Below, piece by piece: positions 1-11,624 of a stretch of DNA of 11,786 bases. The DNA comes from Nitrospirae bacterium GWC2_42_7 (GTDB lineage Bacteria > Nitrospirota > Thermodesulfovibrionia > Thermodesulfovibrionales > UBA6898), in the NCBI GenBank assembly GCA_001803645.1, contig MHDW01000191.1:1336-13121 (forward strand). The letters are read 5' to 3'. Below the pieces are notes generated by a model. The model was not told where the DNA came from. It worked only from the letters and a program-made list of their open reading frames with translations, and searched no databases. Positions within the stretch are counted from its first letter, which is position 1. Every line of letters begins with the position of its first letter. The translations under genes were made by a program, and so were the position numbers.

Positions 1-758
1 CTGCCACAGATTCCAACCAGATAGTAGCAGCATCTACCTCAGGCACATACGCGCATTGGAAGATCGGAAATGTGGATTTTAAGATGGGTCTTTATCTTCT
101 TATCGGCGGTTTTGTCGGCGGGCTTGCAGGAGTACAGGGAATAAAGGTCCTTAAAGCAATGGGCAATGCTGATTTTGTCATAAAAATAACCTATGTGCTG
201 ATGCTCGGTATTGTAGGGACGTATATGTTTATCGAAAGCCTTATGAGCATGAGGAAAAAGAAGATCGAAGAAGCAAACACAGAGAAAGAAACAGCGCTCA
301 CAAGATTTCTTAAATCACTTCCTCTTCAGACCCATTTCGAAAAGTCAGGCGTAACTCACTCAATGCTCGTTCCAATAATTTTTGGAGGATTTGTCGGCAT
401 TCTGTCAGCTGTCATGGGAGTGGGCGGAGGTTTCCTCATGGTACCGGTAATGGTTTATATACTCAGGATGCCTATGCATGTAGTTGTAGGAACAAGTCTT
501 TTCCAGATCCTGTTTAACTGCATTGAAGTCACATTCCTGCAGGCTTATACAAATCATACGGTAGATTTCATTCTCGCTGTGCTCCTTCTGCTTGGCTCAA
601 CTGTAGGTGCACAGGTCGGGACAGTCTTTGGGAGAAAACTGAAAGGCGAACAACTAAAGATCATTCTTGCATCAATCGTTCTTGTTGTTACCATCAAGAT
701 AGTCTTTGATCTTACTTTAACCCCTTCATTACTGTTGGGTCAGGGAGGAGGACATTAA
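1..758 (+). CDS. TauE/SafE family anion exporter, 5' end outside the window
   Basis: This is an inner-membrane carrier of the TauE/SafE (DUF81) family, whose members are implicated in export of sulfite, sulfoacetate or related anions. The frame is open from the window edge (first whole codon at position 3, ATDSNQIVAAS...), so the 251 visible residues lack the N-terminal half-repeat start, roughly 60 residues judging from the second carrier at 7393. Visible parts are the end of repeat 1 with hydrophobic helices, a charged cytoplasmic loop (RKKKIEEANTEKE), and repeat 2 with the signature GILSAVMGVGGGFLMVPVM followed by VVGTSLFQILF. A GTG at 72 could be read as a start, but homology continues upstream of it, so it is internal. 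The C-terminal GGGH is encoded by the Shine-Dalgarno region of the next gene, one base away, which suggests coupling. The substrate cannot be read from the sequence; sulfite is only the family default. Confidence 0.9.
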   Translation, partial: ATDSNQIVAASTSGTYAHWKIGNVDFKMGLYLLIGGFVGGLAGVQGIKVLKAMGNADFVIKITYVLMLGIVGTYMFIESLMSMRKKKIEEANTEKETALTRFLKSLPLQTHFEKSGVTHSMLVPIIFGGFVGILSAVMGVGGGFLMVPVMVYILRMPMHVVVGTSLFQILFNCIEVTFLQAYTNHTVDFILAVLLLLGSTVGAQVGTVFGRKLKGEQLKIILASIVLVVTIKIVFDLTLTPSLLLGQGGGH

Positions 759-759
759 T

Positions 760-1572
760 ATGAACAAAGTTCAGAAGTCTAAAGTCAGAAGCCAGAAGTC
801 AAGAAATTATCATTTAATTAGTCTCCTGGTTTTTCTTGGAATGTTTATATTTTCCGGACAAGCATTAGCAGAGCTGACAGCAAAAGCAAATCACGACCAT
901 ATCAGCATAGACTTTTTCTATCACGGCAGCACTGTCGGTGTTAGTGGTATATCTGATCCTGATGCTGATCTTATAATCAAGATAACCTCTCCTGATGGCC
1001 ACCAGGCACTCAGGCAGAAAGGAAAGGTCGGCGGTATTCTATGGATGAACGTTGGTACGATTGATCTCGAGAATGTGCCGTCACTCTATTTTCTTACGAG
1101 CACAAAGAAAATAGACGATATCCTGAGTAAAGATGAGAGGGCTAAAGACATCGTCGGTTATGAGGCGCTTAAAGATCATGTTGAACTGGCCCCTGTGAAA
1201 AATGAAGATGAAAAAACAAGATGGTTCAATGAATTTGTTAAATATAGGGAACATTCAAAGCTTTATTCCATATCTTCCGGCAATATAACCTTTTCTCAGA
1301 AAGATGGCAAACAGAATTATTACACACTATTTCAATGGCCTTACCAGGCTGCACCCGGCGATTACCTTGTGACAGTCTATGCTGTTAAGAACAACAAGAT
1401 CATCGAAAAAGCTGAGGCAAAAGTTCAAGTTGAGCAGACGGGTATTGTAAAGACCCTTGCCGGCATGGCCAAGAACAACGCTGCTGTTTACGGTATCCTG
1501 TCTATCCTTGCTGCGCTTGGTGCCGGTATCGGGGTCGGGTTAATATTCACAAAAGGCGGAGGTGCGCACTAA
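760..1572 (+). CDS. TIGR02186 / Alph_Pro_TM-type exported, C-terminally anchored protein
   Basis: This 270-residue protein resembles the conserved family TIGR02186 (Pfam Alph_Pro_TM), described from Alphaproteobacteria and commonly found next to TauE/SafE genes. An unusually long basic N-terminus (residues 1-18) precedes a hydrophobic segment (19-33) and a signal-peptidase-like site QALA|E (about 37/38). A beta-rich periplasmic region follows, with D-P-D-A-D near 67-71 and W193-P194 before the AAPGDYLVTVY stretch typical of the family. The C-terminus has a glycine-rich membrane helix (about 241-264). Expected topology is a periplasmic domain tethered by the C-terminal helix. The ATG at 760 has a strong GGAGGAGG site 7 bases upstream. 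Adjacency to the exporter suggests an accessory or substrate-handling role, which is unproven. The 5' end carries 7-bp repeats (separate entry). The function of the family is not known. Confidence 0.8.
   Translation: MNKVQKSKVRSQKSRNYHLISLLVFLGMFIFSGQALAELTAKANHDHISIDFFYHGSTVGVSGISDPDADLIIKITSPDGHQALRQKGKVGGILWMNVGTIDLENVPSLYFLTSTKKIDDILSKDERAKDIVGYEALKDHVELAPVKNEDEKTRWFNEFVKYREHSKLYSISSGNITFSQKDGKQNYYTLFQWPYQAAPGDYLVTVYAVKNNKIIEKAEAKVQVEQTGIVKTLAGMAKNNAAVYGILSILAALGAGIGVGLIFTKGGGAH
765..806 (+). repeat. Degenerate 7-bp tandem repeat inside the 5' coding end
   Basis: Successive heptads read CAAAGTT, CAGAAGT, CTAAAGT, CAGAAGC, CAGAAGT, CAAGAAA. The unit is close to CAGAAGT, with two exact copies and several near copies. 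It encodes the Lys/Ser/Gln/Arg-rich N-terminal extension of the exported protein. Because 7 is not a multiple of 3, gain or loss of a unit would shift the frame, but the imperfect copies make slippage less likely. The tract may be a captured dispersed short repeat. Confidence 0.6.
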
Positions 1573-1574
1573 TC

Positions 1575-2432
1575 ATGTACGATACAATATTAGTAGGTTT
1601 TGACGAATCTTTATCAAGCAGGGCAGCCGTAATTGAAGCCTCTAACTGGACAAAAAAACATGGCGGAAAAGTGATACTTGTTCATGCTGTATTTTTTGAT
1701 ACGGAGGAGTTCGGAATTGCTCCAGAACAGCAGGAAAAACGTTTCAAGATCGGTGAAAAGGCCTGTATCCAGACAAAAGAAATGATCACTTCTGAATTCG
1801 GCATTGACGCACAATACCTGCTCTGTGAAGGTGAGCCGCCTGAAGTAATTATTGACATAGCCAATGGAAAAAAAGCGGATCTGATCGTTCTTGGCACTTA
1901 CGGGAGAAAGGGCCTGAACCGGCTGCTGATGGGAAGCGTTACTTCAAATGTAATTGGTAAATCATTAATCGATGTGCTTGTTGTAAAAAAACAGTGCGAT
2001 AAATGCACCGGAGAATATAAGTCGATACTTGTTCCTTTTGATGGTTCTGAATTCAGCAAGAAAGCTATTGATCGCGCATGTCAGTTATCAAAGCTCGACG
2101 GTAGCAGCATAACCGCCTTATACGTTATTCCCAGATACGAAGAGATGCTGGGGTTCTTCAAAACTGACTCAATAAAGAAAAGCCTGTATCAGGAGGCGGA
2201 CAAAATTATCAATGGCGCAATAAGTCTTGCTTCAAGCCAGGGCATAACAATTCAAAAGGAGATAATTGAAGGCCACTCAGCAGATAAGATCATCGAAACC
2301 ACTATAAAACTGCACAACGACCTGATAATTATCGGCAGTCATGGATATACCGGGATAGACAGGGCACTGATAGGGAGCACCACTGAAAGGGTCATCATAA
2401 ATGCCACCTGCCCCATATTGGTCGTAAGGTGA
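1575..2432 (+). CDS. Tandem-domain universal stress protein (UspA family)
   Basis: This is a 285-residue cytoplasmic protein with two Usp domains (about 1-138 and 147-285). Domain 1 has G107-TY-G110-9X-G120-S121 and domain 2 has G254-SH-G257-9X-G267-S268. Both match the G-2X-G-9X-G(S/T) ATP-binding motif of the UspFG/MJ0577 class, so both sites look competent. Each domain opens with the expected beta strand and acidic residue (ILVGFDES, ILVPFDGS). A CxxC pair (C141, C144, in QCDKCTG) lies in the inter-domain linker and could bind metal or be redox-active. The start ATG lies 2 bases after the previous stop, with GGAGGTG about 10 bases upstream inside the preceding gene. Usp proteins act as nucleotide-dependent regulators or chaperones in stress; here a role in gating or signalling to the neighbouring carrier is inference from context. 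Confidence 0.93.
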   Translation: MYDTILVGFDESLSSRAAVIEASNWTKKHGGKVILVHAVFFDTEEFGIAPEQQEKRFKIGEKACIQTKEMITSEFGIDAQYLLCEGEPPEVIIDIANGKKADLIVLGTYGRKGLNRLLMGSVTSNVIGKSLIDVLVVKKQCDKCTGEYKSILVPFDGSEFSKKAIDRACQLSKLDGSSITALYVIPRYEEMLGFFKTDSIKKSLYQEADKIINGAISLASSQGITIQKEIIEGHSADKIIETTIKLHNDLIIIGSHGYTGIDRALIGSTTERVIINATCPILVVR

Positions 2433-2437
2433 ATAAA

Positions 2438-2857
2438 ATGAAAGGATATAGAAAAATTCTGATAGCGGTCAATGGTTCAAAAAACGTACTTACTGAAGGG
2501 CTGAAACTTGCCGGTGATGAGAGCTGCTGGGTAACTGTTGTGAAGGTCATACCACCCAATGAAGGTGAGCTCCATCTAACAGGCATTAAAGATATAGGGG
2601 ATGTGCTGAACAGTAACGGAGAAAAGGAGACCTCTGAATTAAAAAAGATCGCAGAGACTGAGCGCTCGCTCATAAAAACAAGGCTTGAAGAAGGCAAAGT
2701 TCATGAAAAGATACTCGAGACAGCTGAAGAGGAAAAATGTGACCTGATAATCATGGGGTCCAAAAAGCGCAGTTGGTTAAGAAAAATATTTGGAGATAAC
2801 ACTGTTGAAAAGGTCATTGGACAGGCACCTTGTCCGGTACTGGTAGTAGACGTATAA
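2438..2857 (+). CDS. Single-domain universal stress protein with degenerate ATP motif
   Basis: This 139-residue protein has a single Usp fold, from YRKILIAVNGS at the N-terminus to PCPVLVVDV at the C-terminus. The ATP loop reads G-S-K-K followed by only 8 residues before G-D, so the second glycine, the 9-residue spacing and the S/T are all lost. Nucleotide binding is therefore doubtful. The protein is clearly paralogous to the N-terminal domain of the Usp at 8490 (VIPPNEGELHLTGI here, VVPPYEGDLDTTAI there). The ATG at 2438 is preferred because AAGGTG at 2426-2431 sits 6 bases upstream. A GTG at 2429 in the same frame overlaps the previous stop and would add three residues. This is the last gene of the left operon, followed by a strong terminator. 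It may have a structural or dimerisation role rather than sensing ATP. Confidence 0.88.
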   Translation: MKGYRKILIAVNGSKNVLTEGLKLAGDESCWVTVVKVIPPNEGELHLTGIKDIGDVLNSNGEKETSELKKIAETERSLIKTRLEEGKVHEKILETAEEEKCDLIIMGSKKRSWLRKIFGDNTVEKVIGQAPCPVLVVDV

Positions 2858-2949: not shown

Positions 2950-4629
2950 ATGTTACTTAAGAAAAAAATATTCCTTAGTTTTTTCATCAGTTCGAGCATC
3001 ATCGTGATTCTTGCTGCCATTGCTTATTCCAATTTTCTGGAAATCATGAAAGAAATCCGCTATCTCGAACTATCCGATACATTAAGAAGCAAGTCCCTCC
3101 AGTTAAGAAGGCATGAAAAGAATTTTTTTCTTTATGGCGATTTGAAGGAAATTGAAAACGTCCATATTTATATCAAAGAACTTAAGTTAATTCTCAGGGA
3201 TGCTGAACATTTCTACGCTGGAAAGAATTATCTTAGTGACGCAGCCAAGACAGAAGATGCGGAAAAATTCAACGGTATATATGAGGAATATTCATCTTAC
3301 ATAGAAAAAAAGCAGACAAATCCTGAGAATAATAAGTCCGGTTACAATAGATCTGCTCTTTTTAGTCTTGCAGATCCGATCGAAGAATACGATCAAAGGT
3401 TTAATCGAATTGAAGTGCTGTTTTGGGATTTCCACAAAGAATTCGATAATCTTAAACCATCATATCAGAAGTACTCAGTTTTTTTTCATCTTATTGAATC
3501 AACAGCTCTGGAGCGTCCAGCCATAAATGCAGAGCTTCTAACAAATATTTTTGTCTTGAAGCAGGACAATCCTGCAATAAGGAGTCTTCAGAAACTGGAT
3601 AATGAGATCAGCGCACTCAGAAAAAACGGCGAGGAGATCATAACCATCTCAAAAGAATTTGACAAATCAGCTCGAGAAAGAGTAGAAAAATACATAAATC
3701 TATCGCAGAAAGCAGCCTTGATATTTTTTCCGCTTTTCATCATCGTTGGGCTTGGCAGTCTATTCTTAATCAGTCATGGAGTTGTCAGACGCCTGAAGTC
3801 TTTAACAAAAGCTGTAGAAAAGACCGGAAAAGGTAATTTTATTTCACTGCCCCCTTACGGAGAACGCGATGAAGTCGGCATGCTGATATCAGCGTTTAAT
3901 AAAATGGAAAATGATCTTATAGTCAGGGACGGAGAAATCATACATAAAAATGAAGAGCTTTTACAAAGCAAAAAACTCGCCTCTATTGGCACTCTCGCCT
4001 CCGGAGTTGCTCACGAACTGAATAATCCTCTCAATAATATTTATCTTGCCGCACAGGTGCTCTCCCGAGAAGTCAAGCAGGAAGGATACCCTGGAATAAT
4101 AAAAGAAACCGTTCAGGACATATTCTCACAAACCTTAAGAGTTAAAAGAATTGTCGGCGATCTTCTTGAATTCTCAAGGGAAAAACCGCCGGAGCTTCAA
4201 AAGATCAATATAGTAAAAGTAATCAGTGATGTGCTTACCAGATTTATTGCCTCAGGTGAAATACTAAATACTAACCCGAATTTTGATGCGCCTGAAAGCA
4301 TTGAAATGTTTGGGGATAAGCATCTGCTTGAACAGGTATTTATAAATCTTTTCAGCAATGCCGTTGAAGCGATGAACGGCACTGGTGAAATATCTATAAA
4401 AGCAACCGAGGTTGATTCCACTGTTTTGATAAAAGTTACTGACAGTGGAAAGGGAATCCCTCCTGACATCCTTCCAAGGATTTTTGATCCCTTTTTTACC
4501 TCAAAGGAAAAGGGCACAGGACTTGGACTCTCAATAGTCTATAGTATAATAGAAAAACATAAAGGCAGGATCGAGGTAGAAAGCATGCCTGACAAAGGCA
4601 CTGTCTTTACAATAACATTACCCCGTTAG
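2950..4629 (+). CDS. Membrane sensor histidine kinase
   Basis: This 559-residue kinase is likely the partner of the downstream NtrC-type regulator. Transmembrane helix 1 (about 6-27) and helix 2 (about 255-278) bracket a periplasmic, probably all-helical sensor of about 225 residues. Its LRRHEKNFFLYGD (52-64) resembles the start of helical-bimodular/four-helix sensor domains. A HAMP linker (about 279-332) follows. HisKA has the phospho-acceptor H355 in GVAHELNNPLNN. The HATPase domain has the N box N466/N470 in FINLFSNAVEAM, G1 D498-x-G500-x-G502, F box DPFFTSKEKG and G2 G522-T-G524-L-G526. All catalytic residues are present. ATG 2950 is the first possible start after an in-frame stop and has no Shine-Dalgarno site; a later Met would delete helix 1. 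The ligand is unknown. The AHELNNPL phospho-acceptor motif is typical of kinases paired with sigma54 activators. Confidence 0.95.
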   Translation: MLLKKKIFLSFFISSSIIVILAAIAYSNFLEIMKEIRYLELSDTLRSKSLQLRRHEKNFFLYGDLKEIENVHIYIKELKLILRDAEHFYAGKNYLSDAAKTEDAEKFNGIYEEYSSYIEKKQTNPENNKSGYNRSALFSLADPIEEYDQRFNRIEVLFWDFHKEFDNLKPSYQKYSVFFHLIESTALERPAINAELLTNIFVLKQDNPAIRSLQKLDNEISALRKNGEEIITISKEFDKSARERVEKYINLSQKAALIFFPLFIIVGLGSLFLISHGVVRRLKSLTKAVEKTGKGNFISLPPYGERDEVGMLISAFNKMENDLIVRDGEIIHKNEELLQSKKLASIGTLASGVAHELNNPLNNIYLAAQVLSREVKQEGYPGIIKETVQDIFSQTLRVKRIVGDLLEFSREKPPELQKINIVKVISDVLTRFIASGEILNTNPNFDAPESIEMFGDKHLLEQVFINLFSNAVEAMNGTGEISIKATEVDSTVLIKVTDSGKGIPPDILPRIFDPFFTSKEKGTGLGLSIVYSIIEKHKGRIEVESMPDKGTVFTITLPR

Positions 4630-4721: not shown

Positions 4722-6050
4722 ATGAGTTTTAAAATTCTGATAGCAGAAGACGAGGAAATATCTTTAAAACATTTAAGTTATGCCCTTGAAAAAGAGGGGT
4801 ACAAAGTCACTGCGACAAAAAATGGCCTTGCAGCTCTAGAGAAGATCAGGAAAGAAACATTCGATATCCTGCTTGCTGATATAAAGATGCCTGGCATGGA
4901 CGGACTGGCTTTGCTTTCTGAAGTTAAAGAAAACTACCCTAACATCGAAGTAATAATAGTTACAGGATTTGGCAGTATTGAATCTGCTGTTGAAGCTATG
5001 AAAAAAGGCGCTTCCGAGTACGTAACAAAACCATTCAACCTCGATGAGCTGAATCTGAAAATCAAAAAGATACAGGAAAAAAAAAGATTAGAGAATGAAA
5101 ATATAGCGCTTAAAGTCTCCCTCGGGCTTAACAAAGACCAGCCCTTTATCGCAAAAAGCAGAATGATGAAAAGGGTGATAGATATAATAAACGGCATAAC
5201 CAACTCTGATTGCAATGTCCTGATAACCGGAGAAAGCGGGGTCGGTAAAGGTCTCGTTGCAAAGCTCATTCATTATTCCGGGATGAGAAAAGACAAGCCT
5301 TTCCTAGCAATAAATTGCGCAATTTTTACAGAGGAGCTTTTGGCGAGCGAATTGTTCGGCCACGAGAGAGGGGCTTTTACAGGCGCAATATCATCAAAAC
5401 AGGGACTACTCGAAATAGCAAACAACGGCACTCTATTTCTTGATGAGATCGCCGAGATGCCACCTAACCTGCAGGCCAAATTATTAAAAGTCATAGAAGA
5501 CAAGGAATTTATCAGGGTAGGAGGCACGAGATCAATAAAAGTTGATGTCAGGTTCATAGCAGCCACGAACCAGAATATAAACACAATGATATCCAATGGC
5601 AAGTTCAGAGAGGACCTGTATTACAGGCTCAACGTAATGGATATATATATTGCTCCTTTACGGGAAAGAAAAGATGATATCCTTCCTTTATGCAAATTCT
5701 TTCTTGAGAAACATGCTAAAAAAGAGAACAAAAAGATCGAAGCGTTCAGTAAAGAATCGCTCGAAATAATAATGTCATATGGATTTCCGGGCAATGTCAG
5801 GGAACTCGAAAATATAATAGAACGCGCAGTAATTCTGGAAAAAACCAATCTTGTAACTCCCGAGTGTCTTCCCCAAAGCATAAAAATGTTCCACGTCGAA
5901 ACCATCGACCCTAACAGGATCAAGACAATTGATGAACTCAATAAAGAGTATGCCGAAAAGATACTTGACTATGTTGATGACAACAGATCAAAGGCTGCTG
6001 AAGTCCTCGGTATCTCAAGGACCAGCCTCTGGCGAATATTGAAGAAGTAG
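4722..6050 (+). CDS. Sigma54-dependent response regulator, NtrC family
   Basis: This 442-residue transcription activator acts on RNA polymerase carrying sigma54. The receiver domain (1-120) has the acidic pair D10/E11, phospho-acceptor D53, T81 and K103. The AAA+ domain (about 140-375) has Walker A GESGVGKG (170-177), the sigma54-contacting loop GAFTGA (217-222), Walker B TLFLDEI (D241/E242), an arginine-bearing FREDLYYRL (295-303) and sensor II region FPGNVREL (355-362). A Fis-type helix-turn-helix (about 421-442, RSKAAEVLGISRTSLWRIL) ends the protein. Every functional element is intact. The start has GGAG 5 bases upstream. It is paired with the kinase 92 bases upstream. Its likely target is the sigma54-type promoter at 6387, which lies just downstream. 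It belongs to the AtoC/ZraR/HydG-like group and cannot be assigned more finely. Confidence 0.95.
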   Translation: MSFKILIAEDEEISLKHLSYALEKEGYKVTATKNGLAALEKIRKETFDILLADIKMPGMDGLALLSEVKENYPNIEVIIVTGFGSIESAVEAMKKGASEYVTKPFNLDELNLKIKKIQEKKRLENENIALKVSLGLNKDQPFIAKSRMMKRVIDIINGITNSDCNVLITGESGVGKGLVAKLIHYSGMRKDKPFLAINCAIFTEELLASELFGHERGAFTGAISSKQGLLEIANNGTLFLDEIAEMPPNLQAKLLKVIEDKEFIRVGGTRSIKVDVRFIAATNQNINTMISNGKFREDLYYRLNVMDIYIAPLRERKDDILPLCKFFLEKHAKKENKKIEAFSKESLEIIMSYGFPGNVRELENIIERAVILEKTNLVTPECLPQSIKMFHVETIDPNRIKTIDELNKEYAEKILDYVDDNRSKAAEVLGISRTSLWRILKK

Positions 6051-6129: not shown

Positions 6130-6167
6130 CCCCATCTTAGGTTAAGAGGGGGTTAGGGGGCGTTACT
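6130..6167. repeat. REP-like hairpin repeat, left copy
   Basis: The copy begins CCCCATCTTAGG and continues through a GGGGG tract to GTTACT. It contains an internal near-palindrome (CCCC-A-TCTTA / TAAGA-GGGG). Nearly the same sequence appears inverted at 6255-6289, so the two copies form a head-to-head pair able to fold individually or together. This resembles bacterial REP/BIME or small MITE elements dispersed in extragenic DNA. Confidence 0.7.
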
Positions 6168-6254
6168 TTAAAGACTGCTTTTCTACCATTGTACATTCAG
6201 GGCTACTATCCTTACCACTTCCATAAGATGATTATGAAAATTCCTGTATTTTGG

Positions 6255-6289
6255 AGTAACTCCCCCGGCCCCTCTTAACCTAAGAGGGG
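6255..6289. repeat. REP-like hairpin repeat, right (inverted) copy
   Basis: This is the inverted counterpart of the copy at 6130-6167. It starts AGTAACTCCCCC and ends in a perfect 21-bp palindrome at 6269-6289, with 9-bp arms CCCCTCTTA and TAAGAGGGG around ACC. The two copies match over about 35 bases with a few substitutions, mostly where TTA in one is CC in the other. The pair encloses about 87 bp of unrelated sequence. A weaker relative occurs at 11638. Confidence 0.72.
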
Positions 6290-6386: not shown

Positions 6387-6403
6387 TTGGCACAACACTT
6401 GAT
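6387..6403 (+). promoter_or_regulatory. Sigma54 (-24/-12) promoter
   Basis: TTGGCACAACACTTGAT fits the sigma54 consensus YTGGCAC-N5-TTGCW: the -24 box TTGGCAC is perfect, the 5-base spacing is exact and the -12 box is TTGAT, with A instead of the usual C. Transcription would start near 6413, leaving a leader of about 27 bases with AGGAGG before the ATG at 6440. The upstream neighbour encodes a sigma54 activator, which makes the call more credible. The off-consensus -12 base is the main doubt. Confidence 0.65.
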
Positions 6404-6439: not shown

Positions 6440-6925
6440 ATGAAAGAAAAGCTCTTATTCGTAACAAAAGGAGGTGACAACCTGGAAGAGGGATTTTCTT
6501 ACGCAATAGATCTCGCAAAGACACTCGATGCAGGGATCGTGATCCTGATGATATTTGAAAAGCAGATGAACAGCGACTTCGAAGATTCTATGGCAGCTGC
6601 TGCATTTGCAGAGGCCGGAGAGTTCAGAACAGCCCAGGAGATCCTGCATGAACAAGAGAAAGAAACAACCAGGATTGCGGAAAAGGCATTCAGGGAATTA
6701 TCCGAAAAATACAAGGAGATCTCGAAAGATCTCACTTATCATATAGCCTTTTCCGATATTCATTCATCTATAAAAGATTTTCTAAAGAACATGTCCAGCG
6801 TTGATATGGTCCTTATAAGTCCCAGCCTGACAGTTAATAAAGGCGTTATAGACGTAAAAAAATTACTTAAAAATATTTCTAAACCTATCGTTACCATTTC
6901 AAGGCCTGAACAGGCCAGTGCGTAA
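6440..6925 (+). CDS. Usp-like alpha/beta protein carrying the AFAExGEF motif
   Basis: This 161-residue soluble protein has a predicted Usp-type Rossmann layout: beta1 KLLFVTKGG (4-12), alpha1 LEEGFSYAIDLA, beta2 GIVILMIFEK, a long helical segment (about 45-95), beta3 TYHIAFSD, beta4 VDMVLISPS (121-129) and beta5 KPIVTISR (148-155). The G-2X-G-9X-G(S/T) nucleotide motif is missing. Residues 47-71, with core MAAAAFAEAGEF then TA-E-I, closely match residues 11-35 of the next gene's product. The ATG at 6440 is chosen because AGGAGG (6426-6431) lies 8 bases upstream. The in-frame ATG at 6410 would precede the predicted transcription start and lacks a ribosome-binding site. This is the first gene of the predicted sigma54-controlled operon. 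Its role is unknown; a non-ATP-binding Usp partner of the carrier or of the downstream Usp is plausible. Confidence 0.82.
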   Translation: MKEKLLFVTKGGDNLEEGFSYAIDLAKTLDAGIVILMIFEKQMNSDFEDSMAAAAFAEAGEFRTAQEILHEQEKETTRIAEKAFRELSEKYKEISKDLTYHIAFSDIHSSIKDFLKNMSSVDMVLISPSLTVNKGVIDVKKLLKNISKPIVTISRPEQASA

Positions 6926-6948
6926 CGATACAAAAAAAGGAGAAACAG

Positions 6949-7137
6949 ATGAAAACGTTAAGCAGATTGATGAAGAGTTTTGAAAATGCGATGGCTGCAA
7001 CAGCCTTTGCAGAAGAAGGAGAATTCGAAACAGCAAGAGAGATCATGAACGAAGGCAATCGCCAGGGAGAAAGAATAAGCGGAAGAGTAGACAGTAAAAG
7101 AACAAAACCGACTCTTCGTGCCAGAGGAGGCAAATAA
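6949..7137 (+). CDS. Small 62-residue protein sharing a motif with the Usp-like neighbour
   Basis: No family name is recognised. Residues 1-35 look amphipathic-helical (MKTLSRLMKSFENAMAAT then AFAEEGEFETAREIMNE). The tail (36-62) is hydrophilic and strongly basic, with several Arg/Lys and an RARGGK end. Residues 11-35 match residues 47-71 of the upstream product at 17 of 25 positions, so this segment is a shared module rather than chance. Real translation is supported by AAGGAG (6937-6942) 6 bases before the ATG, its place 23 bases after the previous stop and 2 bases before the next gene, and the conserved protein motif. It is too small for an enzyme; an adaptor or regulator binding a Usp protein or the carrier is possible but unproven. 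Confidence 0.75.
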   Translation: MKTLSRLMKSFENAMAATAFAEEGEFETAREIMNEGNRQGERISGRVDSKRTKPTLRARGGK

Positions 7138-7139
7138 TC

Positions 7140-7391
7140 ATGGCAGCCACTTACACCAAAAAGAAACCGGTCGGCATGATGGTGCTGACCGGCATCATCT
7201 CAATTGCGCTATATGCAGCGCTGCTACTGAAACAGGACTATATTAATGCCACCTTTGCACACGGCGGTTTATACGCCTTTCTGCCTATTCTTACAGCATT
7301 TGTGTTTTCAATTTTTCACGGTTCTTTCACAAGCAATTTTTGGACAGTGATAGGGATAGAAGCATCGAAAAAGAAGAAGGAGGTAAAATAA
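7140..7391 (+). CDS. Small two-helix membrane protein next to TauE/SafE
   Basis: This 83-residue protein has a basic N-terminus (KKKPVG), membrane helix 1 (about 11-30), a short loop with KQDYINATFAHGG, helix 2 (about 44-62) and a lysine-rich C-terminus (KKKKEVK). Both ends are predicted cytoplasmic by the positive-inside rule. The ATG is 2 bases after the previous stop with AGAGGAGG (7123-7130) 9 bases upstream. The stop is one base before the carrier's ATG, and the carrier's AAGGAGGT site lies within its last codons, implying tight coupling. Context points to a small subunit or stabiliser of the TauE/SafE carrier. I recognise no named family. Confidence 0.82.
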   Translation: MAATYTKKKPVGMMVLTGIISIALYAALLLKQDYINATFAHGGLYAFLPILTAFVFSIFHGSFTSNFWTVIGIEASKKKKEVK

Positions 7392-7392
7392 T

Positions 7393-8487
7393 ATGCACGA
7401 TATAGCAGCCCAGGCAACTAATTTTATCGACCTCAACATTATTACCATACTTTATCTTTTGTTCGTCGGATTTGTCGGCGGACTGGTAAGCGGTTTTATC
7501 GGTTCAGGCGGCGCCTTTGTAATGACCCCTGCCATGATGAGTCTTGGCGTCCCGGGTCTTGTAGCTGTTGCAAGCAACATGTGCCATAAATTTCCAAAGG
7601 CGCTTGTTGGAGCGCTTAAACGCGCAAAGTATGGCCAGGTAGACTGGAAAATCGGCCTGGTTATCGGTGTCTCTGCCGAAGCTGGGGTTTTGTACGGCGC
7701 ACATATACAGGAAGGCATTAAAAAGAGTTTCGGCGAGGCCGGCTCAAATCTGTATGTCAGCGTTGCCTTTGTCGTTATTCTCGCCATTGTCGGCGGTTTT
7801 GTCCTGAGAGATGCAATTAAGACTTATAGATCAGGGACTACAAATGATGAAGAAAAGGTCACAAAGATTGCAAAGTGGGTGCAGTCTGTAAATATTCCCT
7901 ATACAATGGTCTATTTTAAGAGCCTGAATGCAAGGGTATCTGTGCTTTTTACAATTCCAATAGGGTTTGCAACCGGAATGCTCGCTGCAACCATTGCAGT
8001 TGGAGGTTTTATTGGTGTCCCGGCAATGATATATGTGCTCGGAGCACCAAGCCTGATGGCTTCTGCATCAGAGCTTGTTATAGCCTTTGTTATGGGTATG
8101 GGCGGCTCTTTCAAATATGCACTTCACGGTCTTGTTGACATTCGCCTTGCCATGATTATTCTTTGCGGTTCTCTTTTCGGCATCCAGCTTGGAGCAATAG
8201 GAACAACATATGTCAAAGGGTATGTTATAAAACTCGTTATGGGAACAATTATGGTAATAGTACTGTTCAGCCGTGCCTTGATGGTCCCTGTGTATCTCTC
8301 TCAACTGAATCTGATCCAACCCCTTAATGAGATGACAGTAAAAGTACTTAAGAACACCAGTTTCGCTATTATGATGATAGCTCTCCTGGTTGGGGCCTTC
8401 ATAGTGCTGACATCAATCTGGAAGGGACGCCGTACGGAACAACAACAGCTGGCTGCTGAAAAAGCAGTAGCTCATGGTAAAATATAA
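7393..8487 (+). CDS. TauE/SafE family anion exporter
   Basis: This 364-residue, multi-helix inner-membrane carrier has the two-fold repeat of the TauE/SafE family. Repeat 1 has GFIGSGGAFVMTPAMMSLG (34-52) followed by VAVASNMCHKF. Repeat 2 has GMLAATIAVGGFIGVPAM (195-212) followed by ASASELVIAF. A charged cytoplasmic loop (about 140-168, with NDEEKVTK) separates the halves. At 364 residues it is longer than the classical members of about 250, because of this loop and a C-terminal tail (QQQLAAEKAVAHGK). AAGGAGGT (7377-7384) lies 8 bases before the ATG. It is related to, but not a close duplicate of, the carrier at the left edge. Substrate is likely an anion such as sulfite, thiosulfate or an organosulfonate by family, not by any residue seen here. 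Confidence 0.93.
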   Translation: MHDIAAQATNFIDLNIITILYLLFVGFVGGLVSGFIGSGGAFVMTPAMMSLGVPGLVAVASNMCHKFPKALVGALKRAKYGQVDWKIGLVIGVSAEAGVLYGAHIQEGIKKSFGEAGSNLYVSVAFVVILAIVGGFVLRDAIKTYRSGTTNDEEKVTKIAKWVQSVNIPYTMVYFKSLNARVSVLFTIPIGFATGMLAATIAVGGFIGVPAMIYVLGAPSLMASASELVIAFVMGMGGSFKYALHGLVDIRLAMIILCGSLFGIQLGAIGTTYVKGYVIKLVMGTIMVIVLFSRALMVPVYLSQLNLIQPLNEMTVKVLKNTSFAIMMIALLVGAFIVLTSIWKGRRTEQQQLAAEKAVAHGKI

Positions 8488-9359: not shown

Positions 9360-9768
9360 GAGCAGTTATTATTTTATGTGACAAAACAATTAAGTCTTCT
9401 TCGTAAATTTTCTGTTCCTCTTCTCTCTGGCGTTGCATTAGCCCCGATCCGGGCCAATTACAATCCTGAGAGCTGCCATAATTTTCTCCATGCCCCTTTT
9501 CCCTGCGCTACAAACTTTCACTTTCTGACAAATAACATATTTATGGTCTTCTTCTTTGAGATTATTTAAGCAGAGGCAACCCAAAACTTACTGACGGTCA
9601 GATCTGCTCTTGTCAAACTTCTATCCAATCATTTCATCTGCTCGAAGGAAATAAATAAGCTTTATATATTGATAGTTGTCTTAAGATTGTCTATTATTAC
9701 AATATGGCCGATACCCGGAATAGCGGTTCGGAATGCCGATAATGATAATATAGTTGAACGGAGGATTT
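9360..9768. other. 409-bp intergenic region
   Basis: No convincing gene is present. A 63-codon open frame at 9378-9569 has a GTG start, no ribosome-binding site and an unprotein-like composition, so it is rejected. Structures seen are an 11-bp palindrome CTGACGGTCAG (9591-9601) inside a wider AGCAGA/TCTGCT pair (9569-9574 and 9603-9608), and a sigma70-like promoter near the right end. No clear intrinsic terminator follows the Usp gene, so read-through is possible. Confidence 0.65.
9669..9697 (+). promoter_or_regulatory. Sigma70-type promoter of the CBS-permease operon
   Basis: TTGATA (9669-9674) and TATTAT (9692-9697) are separated by exactly 17 bp and embedded in AT-rich DNA. Predicted start near 9704 gives a leader of about 65 bases. 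The leader contains short direct repeats GCCGAT (9707, 9735) and CGGAAT (9716, 9729), which could be regulatory or fortuitous. Confidence 0.65.
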
Positions 9769-10257
9769 ATGAAAGCAAAGGATTTGATGATACCGCTTCA
9801 GGAATACCTTAAGCCTGATACAACTCTCAGGGAAGCAGCAAATCTTCTCAGAACTGCAAAAAGAAACGAAGAGAGAATTGGCGTTAAAGGGCTTCCGGTA
9901 CTTGATACGAATGGTGAAATGGTCGGGTTCATTTCAATGGGAGATATCCTTAATGCTGTTTTTCCTTCCTATATGTCTCTTATGAACCTCGGGGATTTCA
10001 CGTGGGACGGAATGGTTGAAGATATGGCAAAAAAAGCAGGGAACAAGAAGGTCTCTGAGGTGATGACAACAAAAGTAATAAGCGTACCTGAAGAAGCTCC
10101 TTTAATGGAATGTGTTGATCATATGCTCAAAAATAATGTAAAAAGACTGCCAGTTATCAGTAAAGACAGCAAAGTCACCGGGATTCTCTATGAAAGAGAT
10201 GTGTTCTTTGCGATTACAAAGTCTATGCTGAATGAAAATACCGGGGGGATTAAATGA
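9769..10257 (+). CDS. CBS-pair domain protein
   Basis: This 162-residue cytoplasmic protein is made of two CBS motifs (about 3-65 and 95-151) forming one Bateman module. Typical strings are KDLMIPLQEYLKPDTTLREAA, GLPVLDTNGEMVGFISMGDIL, VSEVMTTKVISVPEEAPL and RLPVISKDSKVTGILYERDV. Such modules bind adenosine nucleotides and regulate channels, transporters or enzymes. Residues 66-94 form an insert rich in aromatic and Met residues (YMSLMNLGDFTWDGM) between the halves. ATG 9769 is chosen with GGAGG (9760-9764) just upstream; a TTG at 9754 would place that site inside the gene. Its stop overlaps the permease start (ATGA), so the pair is probably co-translated and the CBS protein is likely a nucleotide-sensing regulator of the permease. 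Confidence 0.92.
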   Translation: MKAKDLMIPLQEYLKPDTTLREAANLLRTAKRNEERIGVKGLPVLDTNGEMVGFISMGDILNAVFPSYMSLMNLGDFTWDGMVEDMAKKAGNKKVSEVMTTKVISVPEEAPLMECVDHMLKNNVKRLPVISKDSKVTGILYERDVFFAITKSMLNENTGGIK

Positions 10258-11624
10258 CACACGAGACTGCGACAGCTGCGCAGCCCTTTGTAATGGACAC
10301 GGCATTCTGGACGGCAACAGTCATTTTTTTGATAGCTTATGCCGTGATCATATCAGAAAAAATACATAAGACGGTCATTGCAATATTTGGGGCCGGGCTG
10401 ATGCTTGTTCTAAAGATACTCGAACAGCATGAAGCATTTCATCTCGAAGAATTCGGAATTGACTGGAATGTTATCTTTCTCCTTATTTCAATGATGGTGA
10501 TAATCAATCTTATGAGACCAACCGGTGTGTTTGAATATATTGCTATCAAGAGCGCAAAATTAGGGAAAGGTGAACCCTTCAGGATCATGGCTATTTTTGC
10601 TATTGTTACTGCTGTCCTCAGCGCTTTGCTTGATAACGTTACAACCGTTTTGCTGATCACTCCTGTAACATTGCTTATTGCAGATGCCCTTGATGTTGAC
10701 CCGATCCCCTATCTGATCTCCTGCGCCTTAGCGTCGAATATAGGCGGAACAGCTACTTTGATCGGTGACCCCCCGAATATTATGATCGCATCAAAGGCAC
10801 AGTTGAATTTTATGGATTTTATATATCATCTCGCTCCAATAGTTATAGTAATGATGGTCGTATATATTTTTATAATTAAGCTTATCTGGGGCAAAAAGCT
10901 TAAGACAAGGGACGACTTAAAGCAGAGAATAATGTCAATGAATGAGAATGAGGCGATAAAAGACCCTCTTATGCTTAAGAAATCTCTTTTTGTACTTACA
11001 CTGGTTCTAACCGGTTTTGTCTTCCACGGAATGCTCCATTTCCAGCCTGCAACAGTAGCTCTTTTTGGTGCCGGGCTGCTGCTTCTGCTTTCAAATACGC
11101 ATGAGCCTCACCATGTGCTTGCAGAAGTTGAATGGCCGACGATATTCTTTTTCATGGGGCTTTTCATTATTGTTGGTGGTGTTGTAAAAGTCGGTCTGAT
11201 CAAATGGATGTCATTGCAGATACTTGATCTGACGCAGGGGAACATGTTTGCGACCTCTATGGTTATCATGTGGTTTTCTGCCTTTGCCTCTGCAATCGTT
11301 GACAATATTCCCTATGTAGCTACAATGAACCCGTTGATCGTCGATATGGCAAGACAGCTTTGGCCTGATCTTTCCGGAACAAAACTCCTTCATCACGTTG
11401 ACCTGATGCCTGTATGGTGGTCACTTGCCCTTGGAGCATGCCTAGGAGGGAACGGCTCTGCAATCGGGGCATCGGCAAATGTCATTGTGGTAGGTATGTC
11501 AGAGAAGGCCGGCAAAAAGATATCTTTTATGAAATTCATGGCATATGGAATGCCGATCATGATCCTTACGGTTGTTATATCAACTGTATATGTCTGGCTC
11601 AGATATTATGTGTTAAAAATATAA
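10254..11624 (+). CDS. ArsB/NhaD-type permease (ion transporter superfamily)
   Basis: This 456-residue inner-membrane transporter has two inverted repeats. Repeat 1 carries ALLDNVTTVLLITPV (124-138) and SNIGGTATLIGDPPNIM (161-177). Repeat 2 carries AIVDNIPYVATMNP (347-360) and GGNGSAIGASANVI (398-411). These DN and G-rich helix-break motifs are characteristic of the ArsB/NhaD/CitM/P-protein group. Members move arsenite, Na+/H+, citrate or sulfate, and the sequence does not decide which. A hydrophilic loop (about 213-242) separates the halves. The start overlaps the CBS stop by ATGA, and a GGGGGGAT stretch provides the ribosome-binding site. There is no arsenic-resistance gene nearby, so an arsenite role is not supported. 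A link to Na+/H+ exchange or oxyanion transport is more in keeping with the context. Confidence 0.92.
   Translation: MTHETATAAQPFVMDTAFWTATVIFLIAYAVIISEKIHKTVIAIFGAGLMLVLKILEQHEAFHLEEFGIDWNVIFLLISMMVIINLMRPTGVFEYIAIKSAKLGKGEPFRIMAIFAIVTAVLSALLDNVTTVLLITPVTLLIADALDVDPIPYLISCALASNIGGTATLIGDPPNIMIASKAQLNFMDFIYHLAPIVIVMMVVYIFIIKLIWGKKLKTRDDLKQRIMSMNENEAIKDPLMLKKSLFVLTLVLTGFVFHGMLHFQPATVALFGAGLLLLLSNTHEPHHVLAEVEWPTIFFFMGLFIIVGGVVKVGLIKWMSLQILDLTQGNMFATSMVIMWFSAFASAIVDNIPYVATMNPLIVDMARQLWPDLSGTKLLHHVDLMPVWWSLALGACLGGNGSAIGASANVIVVGMSEKAGKKISFMKFMAYGMPIMILTVVISTVYVWLRYYVLKI

What the first reader, a model, noticed from the sequence alone, without database searches (positions are those of the whole stretch)
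6578..7053. A 25-residue module shared by adjacent proteins: inside a Usp-like protein and as a stand-alone small protein
Residues 47-71 of the 161-residue Usp-like product and 11-35 of the 62-residue product share 17 of 25 residues, with common core MAA-x-AFAE-x-GEF-x-TA-x-EI. In the first it lies between beta2 and beta3 of a Usp fold; in the second it is nearly the whole protein. This looks like a reusable helical interaction element duplicated or fused within one operon. I do not recognise it as a named domain.
Basis: partly seen in the sequence, partly recalled or inferred. Interest (0 to 1): 0.7.

Follow-up and report, generated by a model that had tools for sequence, protein, structure and literature searches.

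The report
Shared helical tag in sulfur-transporter operons
Two neighbouring bacterial proteins share a short helical hairpin that turns out to be an unnamed, ancient and widely reused add-on of proteins encoded beside sulfate/sulfite-type transporters, probably a docking or assembly tag.

Summary
It is not a recent local duplication. A 33-column model finds the module in 96 of 295 genomes of the window's phylum, 37 of 297 of a second and 4 of 149 of a third. It occurs alone, in tandem, inside or N-terminal to degenerate Usp domains, as a tail of receiver domains and as an insertion in a PEP-synthase-like protein whose adjacent paralog lacks it. No Pfam or NCBIfam model reached its cut-off over it and no PDB chain matched. 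Clusters often have a sigma54-type site upstream (75 of 95; 5.8 in shuffles, 13.2 in random same-locus stretches) and TauE/SafE or DASS-type transporters nearby. AlphaFold2 gives a helix-turn-helix on a Usp fold. Best reading: a docking/oligomerisation hairpin assembling regulators of sulfur-oxyanion transport. Interaction is inferred, never tested; no complex could be modelled.

The parts
6578..6652 (+). Module core (residues 47-71) inside the Usp-like protein; HMM match spans about 6563-6658
6979..7053 (+). Module core (residues 11-35) in the small protein; HMM match spans about 6964-7062
6440..6925 (+). Usp-like protein with the module between beta2 and beta3 (161 aa); no canonical Usp ATP motif
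   Evidence: Pfam Usp below cut-off, 15 vs 24 bits; AlphaFold2 and VIA-align Usp fold; the 120 listed of 286 homologs all carry the module; none of those 120 has the ATP motif
6949..7137 (+). Stand-alone module protein (62 aa), hairpin plus basic tail
6388..6403 (+). sigma54-type -24/-12 promoter-like site TGGCACAACACTTGAT before the Usp-like gene
   Evidence: one match, 0.84 expected by chance in the window, so alone not significant; similar sites recur upstream in 75 of 95 module clusters
7140..7391 (+). Small protein with hydrophobic segments (83 aa, 'TM83'), co-occurring with the module; no Pfam family
7393..8487 (+). TauE/SafE (TSUP) permease
   Evidence: Pfam PF01925, 125 bits
8490..9359 (+). 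Two-domain Usp with canonical ATP motif
2950..4629 (+). Sensor histidine kinase next to the operon (named from its sequence by me; not scanned with a family library here)
   Evidence: ORF; homologs recur beside module loci
4722..6050 (+). NtrC-like sigma54 activator / response regulator (named from its sequence by me; not scanned with a family library here)
   Evidence: ORF; homologs recur beside module loci
72..2857 (+). Second (type B) transporter operon: TauE (72-758, start not certain because of an N gap upstream), Alph_Pro_TM (760-1572), two-domain Usp (1575-2432), Usp (2429-2857); the module gene that precedes it lies upstream of the window

Best explanation
The shared segment is one copy of an undescribed mobile domain of about 33 residues, a helix-turn-helix hairpin with the core A-x2-FAE-x-GE-x2-TA(R/K). 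It is added to soluble signalling proteins (Usp domains without the nucleotide motif, receiver domains, a PEP-synthase-like protein) and is also made alone or in tandem, largely in sigma54/two-component-linked operons for oxyanion-type transporters (TauE/SafE, DASS). Most likely it is a protein-protein docking or oligomerisation hairpin that brings these soluble proteins together with the transporter complex (module to module, or module to a shared partner such as TM83), with the 62-aa protein acting as free adaptor or competitor. Shown: the module, its reuse, its linkage, the promoter-like sites, the predicted fold of the Usp-like host. Inferred: that it mediates interaction, with what, and that the transported ion is sulfate or sulfite.
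For: Reuse in unrelated hosts and architectures: small, Usp middle, Usp N-terminus, tandem; receiver proteins, 117 of the 120 listed of 4097 hits to a module-bearing query, 111 of them with the module as C-terminal tail; about 30 extra residues with the module in a PPDK/PEP-synthase-like protein, absent from the adjacent paralog, in two genomes. Helix-turn-helix in the model, block pLDDT 83-85 over residues 51-80, pTM 0.77. Small and polar residues nearly invariant over 187 distinct modules (A12 0.97, F15 0.92, A16 0.98, E17 0.96, G19 0.94, A24 0.91). Genome-level linkage with TM83: both 71, module only 25, TM83 only 8, neither 191 of 295, Fisher p 3e-37, not corrected for kinship. A module-like Usp fused in one ORF to TM83 in two genomes of one genus; there the module is degenerate, about 12 bits, as if tethering made it dispensable. 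Transporters of two unrelated families are neighbours. sigma54-type sites in 75 of 95 clusters against 5.8 in shuffles and 13.2 in random same-locus stretches. Module-bearing Usp proteins lack the ATP motif (0 of 120; 1 of 50) while two-domain Usp proteins from the same loci keep it (54 of 58).
Against: No interaction measured or modelled; the second structure job, a tandem-module protein, was interrupted and the tool then switched off. The junction before the module is poorly predicted (block 41-50, pLDDT 57), so its placement on the Usp domain is uncertain. 19 of 96 genomes show a single module, so pairing of different module proteins cannot be obligatory. I saw no TM83 in the type B and DASS operons read, so it cannot be the universal partner. 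L073 keeps a Usp-TM83-TauE operon with no detectable module, and L076 a TM83-TauE operon with none. 14 of 81 clusters had no transporter-like protein within 3 kb downstream, several being module genes at operon ends. The single-domain Usp of type B operons, without module, also lacks the ATP motif (0 of 6), so motif loss is not special to module carriers.
Confidence: 0.6

Rival explanations
1. A single TPR-like repeat: the module is a one-repeat member of the TPR superfamily that binds peptides or stacks with other repeats as TPRs do.
For: TPR-like spacing of A12, F15, G19, A24, L28 (my reading; the TPR positions are recalled). Sub-threshold Pfam TPR_4 in tandem proteins: 26.9 vs 27.0 bits (L060) and 23.8 vs 27 (L047). 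Tandem copies exist.
Against: No TPR model reached its cut-off; TPR_4 and TPR_12 each match 1 of 26 small or tandem proteins at E<=0.01, the window protein matching no family. Conserved polar E17, E20, T23, R25 are not typical TPR positions (recalled). Often a single copy per protein.
Confidence: 0.2
2. The module is a sensor or ligand-binding element: it binds a metabolite (sulfate, sulfite, APS, nucleotide) and reports it to the Usp or receiver domain.
For: Near-invariant polar residues; hosts are signalling proteins; 88 of 96 module genomes have dsrA.
Against: 33 residues in two helices offer little pocket (inference); it occurs alone with only a tail, and inside an enzyme-like protein.
Confidence: 0.12
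3. The module is merely an extended alpha2 of these Usp proteins and the small gene is a decayed Usp fragment.
For: In the model helix 2 runs on into Usp alpha2 (62-90).
Against: Same module in receiver proteins, in a PPDK-like protein and N-terminal to Usp domains; the small gene is under purifying selection.
Confidence: 0.03

Closest known systems
TeaD, the universal stress protein of the TeaABC ectoine TRAP transporter (PDB 3hgm)
   Different: I did not read the TeaD sequence; the PDB profile search gave no credible chain with the module (one row, E 6.5). The window protein lacks the ATP motif.
Universal stress protein family (PF00582)
   Different: Sequence score 15 bits, below Pfam's 24; ATP motif missing; module hairpin between beta2 and beta3.
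Tetratricopeptide repeats (PF07721 and others)
   Same: Helical hairpin, similar spacing of small and aromatic residues, sub-threshold scores in tandem proteins.
   Different: No curated cut-off reached; often a single copy; different conserved polar residues (TPR positions recalled).
sigma54-controlled TSUP/PSE permease operons of Desulfovibrio vulgaris (PMC4641369)
   Same: sigma54 plus TSUP permease; passages read say nine such operons encode TSUP or PSE transporters without substrate data, and name DVU0132-DVU0133.
   Different: The module is not mentioned in the passages I read, and 'universal stress' occurs 0 times in the main text; I did not read the whole paper.

Membership tests
Universal stress protein (PF00582) | Sequence match over Pfam gathering score | tested here: not met
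   15.0 bits vs 24 for the window protein; some homologs carry PF00582 as precomputed Pfam
Universal stress protein (PF00582) | Usp alpha/beta fold | tested here: met
Universal stress protein (PF00582) | ATP motif G-x2-G-x9-G(S/T) (not universal in the family; recalled) | tested here: not met
   0 of 120 homologs (spacer of 8-10 residues allowed)
TPR repeat | Match over curated cut-off of a TPR model | tested here: not met
   best 26.9 vs 27.0 bits for a tandem protein; TPR_4 and TPR_12 in 1 of 26 members each at E<=0.01
TPR repeat | TPR-type packing of the hairpin | not testable with these tools
   a tandem-module protein could not be folded
TauE/SafE operon accessory (context) | Transporter encoded in the same operon | tested here: met
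   window 7393-8487 PF01925; TauE-like protein within 3 kb downstream in 59 of 81 clusters, any transporter-like protein in 67 of 81

The most novel reading that the evidence does not exclude
Sulfur-cycling bacteria use a shared 33-residue docking tag as a plug: Usp-like, receiver and PEP-synthase-like proteins and free adaptors all carry it, so that different signalling outputs (two-component, stress, energy state) are assembled on sulfate/sulfite-type transporters by the same hairpin, either by module-module pairing in trans or through a common receptor.
Probability: 0.35. Interest if true: 0.8.

Novelty: new variant of a known kind. Interest (0 to 1): 0.62.

Why it matters
How sulfate reducers control sulfate entry, the first step of their respiration, is little known, and TSUP permeases there lack substrate data (PMC5840216 and PMC4641369, passages read). 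A recognisable sequence tag that marks likely soluble partners of such transporters in several bacterial groups would give a direct handle on that regulation, would give a reading for a large set of receivers with an unexplained tail, and would be a new short domain to name and test.

Tried and rejected
Recent duplication within the operon: rejected (8 of 164). Chance similarity: rejected. Named domain: no Pfam or NCBIfam model over cut-off on the module; the PDB profile search gave one meaningless row, E 6.5. The first sigma54 scan had a position error in my script and found nothing; the corrected scan is. Link with sulfate reduction: dsrA (E<=1e-30) and module in the same 295 genomes, both 88, module only 8, dsrA only 45, neither 154; confounded by phylogeny, since by my hand count 111 of 117 genomes of the window's class have dsrA; for the 178 outside that class the hand count is both 13, module only 5, dsrA only 9, neither 151 (from, checked). 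Literature: 'FAEAGE' anywhere in a word, 0 papers; DVU0258-0261, 0 papers; TIGR02186/PF09608, 0 papers; in the listings I saw no paper about the module, in an open-access library only. An expectation of mine from memory, a Tmc-operon link in Desulfovibrio, found no support. The context counts are biased: loci came from a search with the small protein and from regions that I chose, near-duplicate species are included, and 17 clusters with too little flank were dropped. The homolog lists were found with module-bearing queries, so the share with module there is partly by construction.

Full report
The observation. The 161-aa start at 6440 is favoured over the 171-aa ORF, since Met1 is the commonest residue (0.93) at that column in the alignment of 120 homologs. 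The small ORF is a gene: homologs, ribosome site and codon-position pattern.

What it is. The segment is one copy of a module of about 33 residues. An HMM made from five seeds, then rebuilt, finds 65 copies in 29 loci of named records plus the window's own contig. After more loci were added there were 192 copies (187 distinct), classed by simple rules as small 64, Usp N-terminal 45, tandem 42, Usp middle 25, C-terminal 15, other 1. In the window's phylum 96 of 295 genomes have it at E<=1e-3, with up to nine copies; in the phylum of a Desulfobulbaceae MAG 37 of 297 and in that of an Actinomycetes MAG 4 of 149, both at E<=1e-4. Of the 29 named-record loci 22 are from Nitrospirota-type MAGs (Nitrospirae, Nitrospiraceae, Nitrospirales, Thermodesulfovibrionales); the rest are Desulfobulbaceae 3, Thermoleophilia 2, Actinomycetes 1, Caldimicrobium 1.

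Hosts. (1) Usp-like with the module between beta2 and beta3: the 120 listed of 286 homologs all carry it. (2) Usp-like with it at the N-terminus. (3) Receiver proteins: 117 of 120 listed of 4097, in 111 as a C-terminal tail, in 6 elsewhere. Both lists came from queries that bear the module. (4) Stand-alone and tandem proteins. (5) A PPDK/PEP-synthase-like protein (PF01326 and PF00391), in two genomes; the adjacent paralog is 30 residues shorter there and gives no module score. Both lie in a TauE - Alph_Pro_TM - receiver gene order. This case is the clearest sign that the module moves as a unit. Copies within a locus are old: nearest relatives are in the same locus for 8 of 164.

Context. Type A, as in the window: module gene(s) - TM83 - TauE - two-domain Usp, with a histidine kinase and NtrC-like regulator often nearby. 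Type B: Usp-with-module - TauE - Alph_Pro_TM - two-domain Usp - Usp; the window holds its downstream part (72-2857) and the module gene lies upstream at C191:669-1151. Others have DASS-type transporters (PF00939/PF03600). Of 81 clusters with 2 kb or more downstream, 59 have a TauE-like protein and 67 some transporter-like protein within 3 kb; 64 have a histidine-kinase homolog and 62 an NtrC-like one within 6 kb (sample biased as told). TM83 and module co-occur in genomes (71/25/8/191 of 295; kinship not corrected), and 58 of 79 TM83 places have a listed module place within 1.5 kb though the module listing was cut at 150. Of the eight TM83-only genomes I read four: two have a module-like Usp fused to TM83 in one ORF (L074, L075) with a degenerate module; one has the Usp gene without a detectable module (L073); in L076 I saw neither.

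Regulation. A -24/-12 site scoring 9 or more of 12 lies upstream of the first module gene in 75 of 95 clusters (5.8 expected in shuffles; 13.2 in random stretches of the same loci, which can include the true sites), mostly 55-110 or 170-200 bases before the module, as the two gene types require. The window's own site (6388-6403) is no better than chance by itself. sigma54 control of TSUP operons is known in Desulfovibrio vulgaris (PMC4641369, passages).

Structure and mechanism. AlphaFold2 on 45 sequences gives pLDDT 81.5, pTM 0.77; the module is helix 47-58, turn, helix 62-90, the latter running on as Usp alpha2; confidence is 83-85 over 51-80 but 57 over 41-50. VIA-align puts Usp proteins on top, among them TeaD of a transporter operon and the KdpD Usp domain. 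Module-bearing Usp proteins have lost the ATP motif (0 of 120, 1 of 50) while two-domain Usp proteins from the same loci keep it (54 of 58); the module-free single Usp of type B also lacks it (0 of 6). A short hairpin with near-invariant small and polar residues, grafted on signalling proteins of related operons, is most simply a docking or oligomerisation element. Against a strict module-module code: 19 of 96 genomes show one module. Against TM83 as sole partner: I saw none in type B and DASS operons. The substrate (sulfate or sulfite) is inferred from transporter families and from dsrA in 88 of 96 module genomes, which phylogeny confounds.

Novelty. No Pfam or NCBIfam model over cut-off and no credible PDB sequence match, and not met in the papers searched. 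TPR-like scores stay below cut-off. I file it as an undescribed interaction-type hairpin domain: a new variant of a known kind.

Noticed in passing
window 6131-6289: Terminal 21-nt inverted repeats (95% complementary, 117 nt apart) between the NtrC-like gene and the Usp-like gene; the stretch gives 36 matches in the own genome, itself included, nearly all to its ends: it looks like a dispersed MITE-like element.
   Followed up: partly
L074:4136-5071 and L075:4280-5143: Module-like Usp and TM83 fused in one ORF, with a degenerate module.
   Followed up: partly
L071:4322-9999; window 9754-11624: A CBS-protein and ArsB-like transporter pair like the window's lies near receivers, one with module, in another genome.
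   Followed up: no
L078, L079, L080, L086: Clusters in genomes of the Desulfobulbaceae phylum with a tandem-module protein and two proteins with a C-terminal module in a row, at least one a receiver.
   Followed up: partly
window 7140-7391: TM83: unnamed small protein with invariant KP, FS-x2-HG and G residues in 21 aligned copies; found in 79 of 295 genomes.
   Followed up: partly
L004 (G000:C191) about 1160-1340: Run of N just upstream of the window, between the type B module gene and its TauE gene.
   Followed up: no
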